Below are positions 7,986 through 32,422 of a stretch of 64,000 nt of DNA, one piece after another. The translations under genes and the position numbers were made by a program. The stretch comes from Rhodosporidiobolus odoratus (taxonomy: Eukaryota; Basidiomycota; Microbotryomycetes; Sporidiobolales; Sporidiobolaceae): contig JAOANU010000007.1 in NCBI GenBank assembly GCA_034387635.1, forward strand, positions 682,001 to 746,000. The letters run 5' to 3'. The notes beneath the pieces were generated by a model. The model was not told the DNA's origin, made no database searches, and saw only the letters and a program-made list of their open reading frames with translations. The number at the start of each line of letters is the position of its first letter. Position 1 is the stretch's first letter.

Positions 7986-10900
7986 CTTTTTTTTAACAAC
8001 CGACCCAGCAGCTACACTGGCGCCTCGGGTGACTCGCTCATACGCCAAGCAGTACGGCGTACTACCGATCAACCCGTCTCACTACCCTCAGGAGCGGCGG
8101 CGACACCCACTTGACCCCCCTCCTCCTCATTCAACTTCGGACTCTGGTTCTCTCCCCTCTTCGGCTTCCGAGGCAGACGAACCACCCACGGCACTACGGA
8201 AACGGACAACTCGCATCATGACACCCACCACCAGCACCACCTACTCGTACCAACCCGGCAAGGCTCCCGTCCTCATCGATTCGTTTCCCGCCGGTCTCAC
8301 CGCCTTCGTACGTTCTGCCAAGCTTTACTTTAAGACAAAGTCGGTCAAGGAGGACGAGGACAAGGTCGCCTACCTCGGAGCGGGACTCGTGAACTTCGCG
8401 GAACTCTCGAACTGGTACCTCTCGGCGGCGGCGGAACATGAGTCGCGCTCGTACGACACCTTCGTAGCGGAGCTCCAGCGTCGCGCTCTCCCTCGCGACT
8501 ACGTCTGGGAGGCGAAAGGACGACTCCGTTCGGCGAAGCAAGGCGACGAGGATTACGAGGATTGGAGCGACTTCATGCGTTCCGAACACCTCGCCCTCAC
8601 TATCAACATCCTCAGCACGAGGGACTTCGTCGAGTACCTCCTCTACGGAATGGACGTCGAACTCTCGGCGGTTCTTCGACGGGGACAAGCTCTCAAGAAC
8701 TCGGGCTTTCACCAAGACGACCTCACCAGCGTCGCTCTCTCCTCCGCACCTCTCGCCTTCACCACCCCCATCGACTACGACAAGTTCGATCGTGAAGCCC
8801 GTGACGAGTGGAGCAAGATCGCCTTCCGACGACGCAGCAACGCTCAGCAGGTCAAGAACCTCACCAAGAAGACATCCTCCTCGGTCGGTACCGGTGCCGT
8901 CAAGAACGGTTCCTCCTCGCCGCGACTCCCCAAGGTTGTCACGGGAGTAACGGAAACCGTCACCAACGGAGCCGGAACGGATACTCCTCGTCTCAAGAAG
9001 CTCACGGACCTTGAACGAGACTGGCTCAGCGACACGAAGGGCTGTTTCAAGTGCAGGGAGTCGTACGTCGAACACGAAGGTCGTGACTGCAAGGTCTGGG
9101 CGCCTCCCGGTCACGTCGTCCCCGTCCCAGCCGGTTGGTCGAAGGGAAAACCAATTCCCCCTTCGTTCATCGCTGCCAACTCTGGTAGGATCGGTTCCAT
9201 GGTCGCCGCTCTTCATCTCGACGACTCGGAATCGGACGTCGACATCCCGGGACACTTCGCGGACGGATCGGACTCATCGGATTTGGATTCGTGCGCCTTC
9301 CCTCCTCTTTCTCTCCGATTCTCCTCGAAGCGTGGAAGTCGATCGGTTCTGGCCCTCGCTGACTCTGGCTCTTCCGTGACGCTCATCGCAGATAAGCTCG
9401 CGTTCGAGCTAGGGTTGGAGAGGTTCAGACTGAGTAGACCGAAGCGTGTTAGAGTTGCAATCCAAGGAGGAGACGACTCTTTCCTCATCACGGAGTTCGT
9501 TCGATCGCGCACGGAACTGGAGAACGGATCATGGGCTTCTGGTGCGACTACCTTTCTGGTCGCGCCCCTTTCGGAACCGTTCGAGGTCATCCTCGGCGTC
9601 CCTTTCCTTCGGACGAACCGAATCTCCCTCGTCGCCTTCCCCGAACCTCGCATCCTGGTCGACCAAGGAGACAAGAAGGAACCGTACGACCTACTTGCCG
9701 ACGTCCAAGGACCTTCCACCGCCTTCGAAACCCTCGTATCGGCGGATCCATCAGCCGGCAAGATTCTTTCAGAAATCGCCGCCTCCTGCGCCGCTACTCT
9801 GGTCGACAAGACAGAGAAGGAGATCAACGAGCGAGACAACATGAAACGGAGGGCGGATAAGCTCATGACCGAATTCGACGACCTTTTCCCCTCCACCCTT
9901 CCTCCTCTCGCCGCCGACGCTCTCGAGAGGTCGAAGGCACGTCACCGGATCCGACTCGTTGACAACGACAAGGTTCACAATCAGCGCGGGTTCTCGGTAC
10001 CTCGGAAGTGGCGGGAATCGTGGAAACGGATGTTGGAGGAACACCTCGCTGCCGGACGGCTCCGCCCCTTGACGTCTCCCTTCGCTTCCGCCGCCTTCGT
10101 CGTACCGAAGAAGGACAAGACAGCGGATCCTCGATGGGTCAACGACTACCGCGGTATCAACTCGAACACGGTCAAGGACAGGACGCCTCTACCTCTCACC
10201 GACGAGGTCCTCTCCGACGCCGCTCTCGCGAAGGTCTGGGGGAAGATCGACATGACCAACGCCTTCTTCCAGACCCTCATGCACCCGTACGACATCGAGA
10301 AGACGGCCATCAAGACTCCTTGGGGACTCTTCAAATGGACCGTCATGCCTCAAGGACTCTGCAACGCTCCTGCGACGCATCAAGCCCGCGTGAATGAAGC
10401 TCTTTGGCACCTCATCGGAGTCTGCTGTCAAGCATTCGTCGATGACATCATCATTTACAGCAACTCCATCGAAGAGCACGAGGAGAACTGCCGGAGAGTC
10501 CTTTCAGCTTTACGTGAAGCGGGTCTTTTCTGCTCTCGTAAGAAGACTGATCTCTTCACCCTTTGTACAGAGTTCCTCGGCCACATCACCTCGCGGGATG
10601 GCCTCGAAGCGAGCTCGGAGAAGGTCGACAAGATCCTCAACTGGCCTCGTCCCAAGACGGTTACACAAGTTCGCGGTTTCCTCGGCGTGGTTCAGTACCT
10701 ACGGAAGTTCATACCGGATCTAGCTAAGTTCACTTCCACTCTTACCCCTCTCACAAAGAAGGGGATGGCGGGAATTGAGTCGTTGTGGACGGACAAGGAG
10801 GAGAGGGCGTTTGAAGCGATCAAAAGGATCGTGACATCGCTACCGGTACTGAAGCCGATCGATCAAGCCTCTGGTGAGACGATCTGGCTGATGACGGACG

Positions 10901-12765
10901 CGAGTAAGGTTGGGATCGGAGCAGTACTGCTGCAGGGGGAGGACTGGAGGACGGCCACTCCCATTGGGTTCTACTCGAGGCAGTACATTGCGGCGAAGAA
11001 AAACTACCCTACGCACGAGCAGGAGTTACTAGCTATCGTCGCTGCGCTAAAGGCATGGCGCGTAGACTTGTTGGGCGTCCCCTTCAAGATCTTAACGGAT
11101 CATGATACGCTTCGTCACTTCGGGACACAGCAAACGCTCTCGAAGCGTCAAGCGTGGTGGACGGAGACGTTAGCGGACTATGACTTCTCTTTGGAGTACG
11201 TACCAGGACCGCAGAACACGGTTGCGGACTCCTTAAGCCGTTTCTCCTTCTCGGACGAGGAAGTGGCGGTGGCGGTTTGCGGGATCTTGTCGGTTTCACT
11301 CGCACAGTCGGTGGTTGAGAAGATCAAAAAGGGATACGCTGACGATCCGTTTACCGTACAGATCGTTCGCAACCTTTCTTCCTCTCCCTCCTTCTCTCAG
11401 CAAGACGGCCTTCTCTACTTCGAAACCGACCGGATCGTGGTACCCAAGAACAAGGTGGTGCGTGAGGCGTTACTACATGACGCTCACGACGCTCTCGGAC
11501 ACCTCGGACCGCGCAAGACGCTCAAGGCTCTCTCGATGTCGTTCTACTGGAACGGAATGAACAAAGAAGTTGAGTCGTATTGTTCTTCTTGCGATGGATG
11601 TCAACGGTACAAGGCGCGGACGACGAGACGGGCCGGGAAGCTTCACAGCCTACCAGTGCCGTCTCGTCCCTTTTCGGATGTCGCGTTGGATTTTGTGGGA
11701 CCGCTTCCCCTTTCAGAAGGGAAGGACATGCTTCTGACGATGACGGATCGGTTGACGGGCTACTCTTGCATCCTACCGTGCCGTTCAAAGGACGGTGCGA
11801 AGGAAATAGCAGAGTTGCTCTATCGGGGGTGGTATTGTCTTTTCGGTTTACCCGAACGTCTCGTTTCGGATCGGGACAAGCTCTTCACATCGAAGTTCTG
11901 GCGCGCTCTACACAAGCGTGTCGGTCTTCAGTTACAGATGTCAACGTTCTTTCACCCCGAAACAGATGGTCGCTCGGAACGGACGAACAAGACGGCCATT
12001 CAGATCCTCCGGCAGTACGTAACAAGGCATCAAAAGGACTGGGTAAGTCGTCTCTCCACTGTCGAGTACTCCATCAACGCTGCCGTGAACGACTCCACAG
12101 GAAAATCACCATTCGAGGTCGTTCTCGCTTACTCGCCTTCCCTCTTCCCCTCTTCCTCCTCCGCCCCCTCTCCGGTTCCCGCCGTCGAAGACGTTCTCGA
12201 GGATTGCAAGGCTACGATTACGGAGGTCCGGGAAGCGTTGGCGGCGTCGAAAATCCGGCAAGCGGAACAGTCAAACCGGAAGCGGGGGGAGGATCCCTCG
12301 TTTTCGGATGGGGACTGGGTGATGGTGGATTCAACGGACCGGAGGTCGCGCTACAAAACACGGGGCGGTGACGTACGTGCGGCGAAGCTGTTCCCTCGCT
12401 GGGACGGACCGTACAAGGTACTCGAAACTTTCCCCGACACTTCCACTTTCCGCCTCGATCTCCCTCCTCTCGACCGCGCACACCCGGCATTCCATTCTTC
12501 CAAGCTCAAAATCTACACTCCCAACGACCCCTCCTCCTTCCCCTCCCGCGAACCTCCTCGTCCCGATCCCATCGACGTCGACGGCGAAGCAGAGTTTGTG
12601 GTGGAAAAGATCGTCGACGAGAGAAAGTTTAGGAGGAAAACACAGTTCATGGTGAAGTGGGAAGGTTACCCAGACACGGACAACTCGTGGGAACCAGCGG
12701 AAGGACTCGAGGACACGGCGGCATTGGAAGAGTGGTTAAAAAAGAAGGGACGGGGGGAGGTTTAG
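7936..12765 (+). CDS. Gag-Pol polyprotein with C-terminal chromodomain
   Basis: A single frame of 1609 codons holding all retrotransposon functions. Order: Gag with a CCHC-like knuckle near residue 369 (CFKCRESYVEHEGRDC, CX2CX6HX4C); aspartic protease at about 475 (ADSGSS); reverse transcriptase about 710-900 with the catalytic FVDDII near 834; RNase H (MTDASKVGIGAVL, THEQELLAI); integrase with an HHCC zinc module (CSSCDGC) and DDE residues in LDFVGP, VSDRDK and DGRSER; and a chromodomain at about 1553-1609 (MVKWEGYPDTDNSWEPAE). Gag and Pol are fused without stop or frameshift, as in Tf1-type elements. The first ATG (7936) lies in the 5' LTR. A later ATG at 8218 directly precedes the recognisable Gag and may be the real start. 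Confidence 0.95.
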   Translation: MFSRRSARVLVETLTFHFFLTTDPAATLAPRVTRSYAKQYGVLPINPSHYPQERRRHPLDPPPPHSTSDSGSLPSSASEADEPPTALRKRTTRIMTPTTSTTYSYQPGKAPVLIDSFPAGLTAFVRSAKLYFKTKSVKEDEDKVAYLGAGLVNFAELSNWYLSAAAEHESRSYDTFVAELQRRALPRDYVWEAKGRLRSAKQGDEDYEDWSDFMRSEHLALTINILSTRDFVEYLLYGMDVELSAVLRRGQALKNSGFHQDDLTSVALSSAPLAFTTPIDYDKFDREARDEWSKIAFRRRSNAQQVKNLTKKTSSSVGTGAVKNGSSSPRLPKVVTGVTETVTNGAGTDTPRLKKLTDLERDWLSDTKGCFKCRESYVEHEGRDCKVWAPPGHVVPVPAGWSKGKPIPPSFIAANSGRIGSMVAALHLDDSESDVDIPGHFADGSDSSDLDSCAFPPLSLRFSSKRGSRSVLALADSGSSVTLIADKLAFELGLERFRLSRPKRVRVAIQGGDDSFLITEFVRSRTELENGSWASGATTFLVAPLSEPFEVILGVPFLRTNRISLVAFPEPRILVDQGDKKEPYDLLADVQGPSTAFETLVSADPSAGKILSEIAASCAATLVDKTEKEINERDNMKRRADKLMTEFDDLFPSTLPPLAADALERSKARHRIRLVDNDKVHNQRGFSVPRKWRESWKRMLEEHLAAGRLRPLTSPFASAAFVVPKKDKTADPRWVNDYRGINSNTVKDRTPLPLTDEVLSDAALAKVWGKIDMTNAFFQTLMHPYDIEKTAIKTPWGLFKWTVMPQGLCNAPATHQARVNEALWHLIGVCCQAFVDDIIIYSNSIEEHEENCRRVLSALREAGLFCSRKKTDLFTLCTEFLGHITSRDGLEASSEKVDKILNWPRPKTVTQVRGFLGVVQYLRKFIPDLAKFTSTLTPLTKKGMAGIESLWTDKEERAFEAIKRIVTSLPVLKPIDQASGETIWLMTDASKVGIGAVLLQGEDWRTATPIGFYSRQYIAAKKNYPTHEQELLAIVAALKAWRVDLLGVPFKILTDHDTLRHFGTQQTLSKRQAWWTETLADYDFSLEYVPGPQNTVADSLSRFSFSDEEVAVAVCGILSVSLAQSVVEKIKKGYADDPFTVQIVRNLSSSPSFSQQDGLLYFETDRIVVPKNKVVREALLHDAHDALGHLGPRKTLKALSMSFYWNGMNKEVESYCSSCDGCQRYKARTTRRAGKLHSLPVPSRPFSDVALDFVGPLPLSEGKDMLLTMTDRLTGYSCILPCRSKDGAKEIAELLYRGWYCLFGLPERLVSDRDKLFTSKFWRALHKRVGLQLQMSTFFHPETDGRSERTNKTAIQILRQYVTRHQKDWVSRLSTVEYSINAAVNDSTGKSPFEVVLAYSPSLFPSSSSAPSPVPAVEDVLEDCKATITEVREALAASKIRQAEQSNRKRGEDPSFSDGDWVMVDSTDRRSRYKTRGGDVRAAKLFPRWDGPYKVLETFPDTSTFRLDLPPLDRAHPAFHSSKLKIYTPNDPSSFPSREPPRPDPIDVDGEAEFVVEKIVDERKFRRKTQFMVKWEGYPDTDNSWEPAEGLEDTAALEEWLKKKGRGEV

Positions 12766-31228: not shown

Positions 31229-31634
31229 TACAGTAGATTCCCTCTATAAGAAACACATTGGGAGATGGGGTTCTTGCTTCTTATAGAGGATCATTTCTTA
31301 CAGAGGTTGACCTATACCATATTGTAGCCACTGTTCTGATTCCTCGAGAAGTCCTTTCACCTTGACCATAGCTACTCTGTAAAGCGAGCAAAGCGAGATT
31401 GAAGTTGAGAAGGCCAAATCATCTTAAGTCCAGCCAGTCAAGGTGCGCAGGTGAGAAGGTTGGAAACTCAAGGTTGAGGGTTCAAATTTTCAAATCCGAG
31501 TGCTTGACCTTTTTCATTGGGCTACTCTCTTCCTCAATAGACAGGCAAGATGAGGTACAGTGCTTGCAAGCCTTCAAGCATGAAGCATGTATACAAAGAG
31601 CAGAATCTAGGTCAAAAAAGGGGAAAGGATTTGT

Positions 31635-32019
31635 CTAAGCATCCATCCACTCCTCCATCTCGATGAGGACAACTTTGTCCCTCTCCTCCCGGTCCAGCTC
31701 CGGATGCTGGCACGCAGCTCCAGCAAGGTCAATGAAAATCTCCTCAAAGTTTGTCCTCCTGATCTCAAGCAAGCGGCAGGCAGCGCGAAGGGTTTTGACC
31801 GCCTCGGAGTCCTCGGAGAGGGCAACAGCCGTGACAATCGGCTTGCCGTGCTCTTTGATACCGCCAAGGACAATCGAGGCAAGGACGTCCATAGCTGTAG
31901 ACACGATATGAGATCAGCTAGTACCCTGCCCTCCCTGCCTAGTAAGCGAGAGCGAGAGATGACATACCATCCTGTTGCTTGGCTTCACGCTTGGCTTTGC
32001 TAGCCTTGCCCTGGGCCAT
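31635..32019 (-). CDS. Small unknown protein gene inside the TIR element
   Basis: A 103-codon gene. Exon 1 is 31968-32019 (ATG at 32019) and exon 2 is 31635-31894, joined by an intron with GTATGT donor and CTACAG acceptor. The protein starts MAQGKASKAKREAKQQD (basic), continues VLASIVLGGIKEHGKPIVTA and ends EMEEWMDA. No stops or frameshifts were seen, and splicing keeps phase. I do not recognise the family; it shows no transposase motif, zinc finger, signal peptide or membrane segment. Upstream (to the right) a purine-rich plus strand gives a pyrimidine-rich promoter-like region. It lies between the inverted repeats and so may move with the element. Confidence 0.65.
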
Positions 32020-32040
32020 ATTGAGGTTGGTGTGTGTGTG

Positions 32041-32105
32041 GGGGGGGAGGAGGAAGTGATAAAGAAGAAGAAAGAAGAAGAAAGGAGAGGAAAGGGAGGG
32101 AAGAG
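32041..32105. repeat. Purine-rich simple repeat upstream of the small gene
   Basis: GGGGGGGGAGGAGGAAG followed by AAGAAGAAAG-type repeats. Read on the minus strand it is a CT-rich tract just upstream of the ATG, a common fungal promoter feature. Confidence 0.7.
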
Positions 32106-32422
32106 GAGCAGCCAAAAAGCAAAGTCAGAAGGTTGCCCTCTCCCGTAATCGAATGCTCTCTATCTCCGGAACAATGATAGAGGCTTCACTCTGTAAAAAA
32201 GTACCTTTAGACTATGCTACCGACGTATCAACTGAGGGCGTTTCGCTGAAAACGTTCATGATAGCTGTCGCTTATAAGAAGTATGACCCTCCCAACTCCG
32301 CTTTTGCCTTATAGCGGTGCTTTATGCCTCGCACCATAGAACAGAGGTGGGAGACAGCAAAGCTGCTTCCTATAGAGCAACATCTTTAATAGAGAGCCTT
32401 CTTATAGAGGGTATCTACTGTA

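What the first reader, a model, noticed from the sequence alone, without database searches (positions are those of the whole stretch)
31229..32422. Inverted-repeat transposon carrying a captured intron-containing gene
The ends CAGTAGAT(T/A)CCCTCTATAAG are near-perfect inverted repeats next to TA on both sides. Subterminal TATAGAG copies are present and the only gene inside is a clean 103-codon spliced frame with its own upstream region, not a transposase. Established knowledge: gene capture by MITE or Pack-type elements is documented mainly in plants, and less so in fungi.
Basis: partly seen in the sequence, partly recalled or inferred. Interest (0 to 1): 0.75.

Follow-up and report, generated by a model that had tools for sequence, protein, structure and literature searches.

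The report
Small transposon carrying a decaying gene
A short jumping DNA element in a red yeast carries a small gene of unknown kind; related copies sit at many places in the genome, but no source gene outside the elements was found and the gene is broken in most copies.

Summary
Window 31229-32422 is one 1,194-bp element with 22-nt terminal inverted repeats (one mismatch) beside TA. A 97% identical copy lies at unrelated flanks on another contig, so the ends are not two separate MITEs. A nested copy elsewhere shows TA duplication against the single TA of the window copy. The host is Rhodosporidiobolus odoratus or a very near relative.

The gene (minus strand, two exons, 103 codons) looks like real coding DNA by its three-base GC pattern. 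Its length alone is within chance. 'Captured' is not supported: all 15 protein rows and all 7 DNA rows for intron, exon 1 and upstream fall in element copies. The protein collection gave one relative, from R. odoratus. Of 10 places with exon 2, the complete spliced frame is open in 2. Seven of nine simulated pairs of copies fit neutral decay; two hint at past constraint.

Best reading: a non-autonomous, TA-targeting transposon family that carries an old, decaying orphan gene. No transposase with matching ends was found. Gene origin (captured from a lost donor, or the element's own relic) is unresolved. New member of a known kind.

The parts
31229..32422 (.). whole element including one TA at each side (1,194 bp)
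   Evidence: full-length copy at G000:C10:1313786-1314980, 97% identical, unrelated flanks
31229..31230 (.). TA, left half of the target-site duplication
   Evidence: TA duplication shown on the nested C10 copy
31231..31252 (+). left terminal inverted repeat, 22 nt
31275..31289 (.). subterminal inverted copy of the TIR inner part (TGCTTCTTATAGAGG)
   Evidence: pair I2
31635..31894 (-). exon 2 of the resident gene, with stop codon
   Evidence: GC by codon position 0.65/0.36/0.71
31895..31967 (-). intron, 73 nt, GTATGT..CTACAG
   Evidence: sequence only, no transcript data
31968..32019 (-). exon 1 of the resident gene (start codon at 32019)
   Evidence: matches found only in element copies
32282..32283 (.). 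the single TA that corresponds to the site where another copy inserted in the C10:1185468-1187252 element (paralogous empty site)
32399..32420 (-). right terminal inverted repeat, 22 nt
32421..32422 (.). TA, right half of the target-site duplication

Best explanation
This is one copy of a non-autonomous, TA-targeting inverted-repeat transposon family (cut-and-paste, Tc1/mariner-like by its ends and TA duplication) in Rhodosporidiobolus odoratus or a near relative. A transposase supplied from elsewhere, not identified in this assembly, would recognise the 22-nt TIRs and perhaps the subterminal CTTATAGAGG copy and move the unit into new TAs. Between the ends the family has long carried a small spliced gene. 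The gene rides along and mostly decays: exon 1 is gone in one subfamily, exon 2 in two nested copies, and only the last codons remain in three shorter copies. Shown here: one unit, many copies, TA duplication, gene matches only in elements, few intact copies. Inferred: the transposase acting in trans, the superfamily, passive carriage, and the gene's origin (captured from a donor now lost or unrecognisable, or the element's own relic).
For: Unit and copies: 63 matching pieces; 48 TIR sites, 1 in the control. Window and C10 copies are 97% identical, and their flanks (1.4 and 1.5 kb a side) share no match longer than 16 nt. TA on both sides in 10 of 11 further copies listed; the eleventh has GA on the left. 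In C10 a copy sits inside another with TA on each side, where the window copy has one TA; those two copies are 99.2% identical, so movement was recent. Gene in elements: 15 of 15 protein rows to E 10 and 7 of 7 DNA rows overlap element matches. Gene old in the family: both exons in subfamily A, exon 2 in B, its end in three shorter copies. Gene real. Decay: spliced frame open in 2 of 10 places with exon 2. Substitutions by codon position in exon 2: 37/27/38.
Against: No autonomous partner: of 7 rows for DDE_1, DDE_3 and HTH_Tnp_Tc5 none has a pair of such ends in the held flanks; one (C40, L078) has a single loose end-like site with 3 mismatches to a degenerate pattern. So the superfamily rests on ends and TA alone. 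Some pairs hint at past constraint: dN/dS within subfamily B is 0.18 to 0.54; 2 of 9 simulated pairs had fewer amino-acid changes than neutral at P below 0.05 (0.0405 and 0.007, uncorrected); window against C2:1773860 has 0 indels in exon 2 and 5 in the 3' flank (P 0.03). The three-base signal in known host coding stretches is weaker than in exon 2 (medians 3.8 and 4.8), so that test is not a clean yardstick.
Confidence: 0.8

Rival explanations
1. Gene capture proper (Pack-type): the element copied a host gene with its upstream region and intron between its ends, then spread it. (This and the next rival concern the gene's origin, which the best explanation leaves open.)
For: The gene lies in the block without a match in the related gene-less family II (element positions 354 to 1069 against the C5:1282405 copy). 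GC is lowest at codon position 2, as in the host frames compared. The DNA upstream of the start codon is pyrimidine-rich, as in many fungal genes (the comparison is recalled).
Against: No donor by DNA or protein in the own genome, and one relative only, from R. odoratus, in about 5.8 billion proteins (the search needs shared 5-residue words). Family II could equally have lost the gene.
Confidence: 0.35
2. The gene is the element's own: a relic of an accessory gene of the ancestral autonomous element, left after the transposase gene was lost.
For: Gene matches lie only in elements, in two subfamilies and three shorter copies, with no donor. [quoted passage not shown] PMC7325037, passage seen).
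Against: No autonomous element with these ends was found. No Pfam transposase match for the protein.
Confidence: 0.35
3. The frame is not a gene but a chance open frame in element DNA.
For: Frames this long are common in Markov sequences of the element's make-up. Poor model (mean pLDDT 52.5), no Pfam match above cut-off, no PDB match. No third-position excess of substitutions.
Against: Three-base GC pattern in exon 2 at p about 1e-5 and in the diverged C2:1773860 copy at 2e-4; the highest of 29 windows elsewhere in the element is chi2 4.2 against 23.1.
Confidence: 0.15
4. Two separate MITEs flank an ordinary single gene by chance.
For: None found.
Against: The complete unit recurs at 97% identity with unrelated flanks, and gene-bearing units of 997 to 1,470 bp with TA on both sides recur at five further places.
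Confidence: 0.01

Closest known systems
Non-autonomous Tc1/mariner-like elements and MITEs with TA duplication
   Same: Inverted repeats beside a duplicated TA, no transposase match inside, many copies, shorter internally deleted forms
   Different: Window copy is 1.19 kb and carries a non-transposase gene; no autonomous partner found
Pack-TIRs and Pack-MULEs (PMC8277862, passages seen)
   Same: Non-transposase gene sequence between TIRs, multiplied with the element
   Different: There a parental copy not associated with TIR elements was required; none was found here
Histone H3 transduplication by hAT elements in Pyrenophora tritici-repentis (PMC3538342, passages seen) and Pseudocercospora fijiensis (PMC6710886, abstract and section list seen)
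   Same: A gene carried and multiplied by a DNA transposon in a fungus; in P. fijiensis the copies other than the original were inactivated
   Different: There the gene is histone H3 and the element a hAT, with a transposase in the long P. tritici-repentis form; here an orphan gene, TA-targeting ends and no transposase

Membership tests
Non-autonomous TA-targeting TIR transposon (Tc1/mariner-like) | Terminal inverted repeats at both ends of a repeated unit | tested here: met
Non-autonomous TA-targeting TIR transposon (Tc1/mariner-like) | TA target-site duplication shown against an empty site | tested here: met
   nested C10 copy against the window TA at 32282; the window's own site has no empty counterpart in this genome
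Non-autonomous TA-targeting TIR transposon (Tc1/mariner-like) | No transposase inside | tested here: met
   genome searches with DDE_1, DDE_3 and HTH_Tnp_Tc5 gave no match in the window element or another copy; the longest frame in the element is 130 codons stop to stop. Only the 103-aa protein was put to Pfam
Non-autonomous TA-targeting TIR transposon (Tc1/mariner-like) | Tc1/mariner transposase with matching ends | tested here: inconclusive
   7 rows, none with a pair of such ends in the held flanks of about 1.5 kb. One search lists no TIR site on contigs C4, C6, C34, C40; on C2 the nearest sites are 4.7 and 5.4 kb from the DDE_3 row and belong to partial copies
Pack-TIR (captured host gene) | Parental copy outside any element | tested here: not met
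   the tool scores only best candidates, so a very diverged donor could be missed
Pack-TIR (captured host gene) | Non-transposase gene sequence between TIRs | tested here: met
MITE in the strict sense | Short (below about 800 bp, recalled) and without coding capacity | tested here: not met
   window copy is 1,194 bp with a coding-like exon; shorter relatives of 417, 634 and 691 bp exist

The most novel reading that the evidence does not exclude
The element family carries a lineage-specific gene that still works in the two intact copies (window and C10:1313786), for example a small charged protein that acts in trans on the movement or silencing of the family: an accessory gene of a transposon that lacks its own transposase.
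Probability: 0.1. Interest if true: 0.6.

Novelty: new member of a known kind. Interest (0 to 1): 0.33.

Why it matters
It adds a basidiomycete yeast case to the fungal examples of DNA transposons that carry and multiply a gene other than a transposase. Because copies at several stages of decay lie in one small genome, it shows how such a gene erodes after spread. If a donor or an autonomous partner turns up in a relative, the direction (gain by capture or loss from an older element) becomes decidable.

Tried and rejected
Two separate MITEs around a gene: rejected. Donor gene outside elements: not found. Gene of bacterial or viral origin: no match in phage records; in prokaryote contigs 73 stretches and in viral contigs 17 matched a short pattern and none was a relative by tblastn. 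Structure prediction gave a poor model (mean pLDDT 52.5), so no fold search was run. PDB search by profile: no match at E 10.

Autonomous partner: DDE_1 one row, DDE_3 five (two of them adjacent on C6), HTH_Tnp_Tc5 one; no pair of matching ends. A search with family II DNA gave 39 rows; I did not search those copies for a transposase. A possible second capture in the C14:462802 copy was dropped: its inner DNA has 69 matches in the genome (40 of 60 candidates scored), many evenly spaced on C7 and C13, so it looks like another repeat, perhaps an LTR (inference, those places were not read). Empty site for the window copy: only its own two flanks match. tRNA-like stretch of the family: no Rfam match to E 1 inside the elements of L058 or L001; the two tRNA matches in L070 lie outside the elements.

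Literature: 12 papers listed; 6; 15 of 52 listed; 15 of 56; 8 of 24; none; 1. I saw titles and starts of abstracts there, and passages or abstract of five papers. None of what I saw describes this element family; that does not show that it is not in print.

Full report
What is there. The window element runs from 31229 to 32422. Its ends are TA followed by CAGTAGATTCCCTCTATAAGAA, and the mirrored right end differs at one position. The TIR occurs nowhere else in the 64 kb. The genome in which the window lies (24.8 Mb, 45 contigs, no names) has 48 sites within 3 mismatches and 1 for the pattern read backwards. Eight of the 48 read ACAGTAGGGACCCTCTATAAC (counted) and mark a related family, called family II below.

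One unit, many copies. The whole element matches G000:C10:1313786-1314980 at 97%. The flanks of the two copies, 1.4 kb a side against 1.5 kb, share only matches of 11 to 16 nt. One search lists 63 matches; these are pieces and not copies, and the tool calls such counts lower bounds. Of 11 further copies whose two ends I read, 10 have TA on both sides and one has GA on the left (the list was mine, from copies with both ends found). In C10:1185468-1187252 one copy sits inside another. The junctions read ATAAGAAG-TA-CAGTAG and CTACTG-TA-TGACC, while the window copy reads ATAAGAAGTATGACC at 32274-32288, with one TA. That is a filled and an empty site for the same position, so TA is duplicated on insertion. 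The nested and host copies are 99.2% identical. The window's own site has no empty counterpart in this genome.

The gene. Minus strand, ATG at 32019, intron 31967-31895, stop at 31635; 103 aa. There is no transcript evidence. By length the frame is not unusual, and a longer frame lies on the other strand. By composition exon 2 is coding-like: GC 0.65, 0.36 and 0.71 at codon positions 1 to 3, chi2 23.1. None of 29 other windows in the element exceeds 4.2, and 2.8% of 638 windows over the 64 kb reach 23.1. The diverged copy at C2:1773860 shows it too (p 2e-4). Control: in two host coding stretches the median is only 3.8 and 4.8, and in the retrotransposon-like frame 9.7, so the signal varies among coding regions. 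The protein has no Pfam family above cut-off (DUF460 at E 0.1), no PDB match and no trustworthy model.

Where else the gene is. Protein search of the own genome to E 10 lists 15 rows, the window's own included, and each overlaps an element match. DNA of intron, exon 1 and upstream region (31895-32200) gives 7 rows, all in elements. The protein collection gave one relative, a 79-aa hypothetical protein of Rhodosporidiobolus odoratus JCM11641, 91% identical, on a 4.3-kb contig. A profile search to E 10 gave the same single hit. A window protein whose more distant relatives carry bZIP domains is 97% identical to R. odoratus JCM11641 and 44% to the next, R. nylandii. So the host is R. odoratus or very near it, and the gene family is present in that strain too.

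State of the copies. Ten places hold exon 2. Subfamily A as aligned (window, C10:1313786, C27:115771) has both exons and the intron; C27 has a one-base deletion in exon 1 and a 282-nt insertion in exon 2. Subfamily B (six copies) lacks exon 1 and the intron, and five of the six carry a one-base deletion in exon 2; the sixth, C2:1773860, keeps 85 open codons from the exon-2 ATG. C2:1790165 keeps only part of exon 2. The two nested C10 copies keep exon 1 and lack exon 2. Three shorter copies (C26:208743, C26:11451, C5:73004) keep only the end of the gene and DNA after it; other short copies show no gene match there. The complete spliced frame is therefore open in 2 of 10.

Selection. Substitutions in exon 2 by codon position are 37, 27 and 38. 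dN/dS by Nei-Gojobori is 0.41 to 1.04 between A and B, 0.65 and 0.77 for the window and C10 copies against C27, and 0.18 to 0.54 within B; window against C10 has 0 silent and 2 replacement changes. Against simulations with the substitution spectrum of the non-coding parts, 2 of 9 pairs fall below P 0.05, both within B (0.0405 and 0.007, uncorrected). Window against C2:1773860 has no indel in exon 2 and five in the 3' flank (P 0.03); the other six pairs of that test do not reach P 0.05. Seven of the nine simulated pairs fit neutrality; some past constraint is possible.

Family II. The 710-bp copy at C5:1282405 shares 16-122, 327-353 and 1070-1194 of the window element. The stretch without a match, 354-1069 (window 31582-32297), holds the gene. 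Either family I gained the gene or family II lost it; the data do not say which.

Mechanism. TA duplication and CAGT ends suggest a Tc1/mariner-type transposase acting in trans (inference; recalled family traits). The genome has 1 DDE_1, 5 DDE_3 and 1 HTH_Tnp_Tc5 row. None has a pair of such ends within about 1.5 kb; L078 has one loose end-like site. One search lists no TIR site on contigs C4, C6, C34 or C40. The DDE_3 row on C2 lies 4.7 and 5.4 kb from TIR sites of partial copies in a locally duplicated region. The mover is unknown.

Comparison. Gene carriage by DNA transposons is known in fungi: histone H3 in hAT elements (PMC3538342, passages; PMC6710886, abstract). The Pack-TIR survey of animals required a parental copy (PMC8277862, passages), which is missing here. 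I therefore file this as a non-autonomous TA-targeting TIR family with a resident orphan gene, and not as a Pack element.

Noticed in passing
L062 (G000:C10:1185468-1187252): A copy of the element inserted in another copy of the same kind, 99.2% identical: recent movement and a paralogous empty site.
   Followed up: yes
G000:C2:1806177-1815220 (L055, L056): The two parts of one subfamily-B copy seem to be split by about 8 kb of other DNA near element position 1134, probably another mobile element; the inside was not read (inference).
   Followed up: no
G000:C2:1774748-1775844 and C2:1779392-1780486 (L052, L053), also L054 and L076: Stretches of 0.3 to 1.1 kb, 99.0 to 99.9% identical and in inverted order, near the elements on C2: recent local duplications.
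   Followed up: partly
window about 31476-31497 and L058 2156-2167: The element family holds a stretch like a tRNA T arm (GGGTTCGAACCC in family II, changed in the window copy); Rfam found no tRNA there.
   Followed up: partly
window 8218-12765: An uninterrupted 1515-aa frame that looks like the polyprotein of a Ty3-type retrotransposon (by eye; no family search run).
   Followed up: no
G000:C7:1099063-1117665 and C13:465326-478964: Matches to the inner DNA of the C14:462802 copy repeat at about 1.8 to 2.3 kb spacing, which suggests tandem arrays of some repeat.
   Followed up: no
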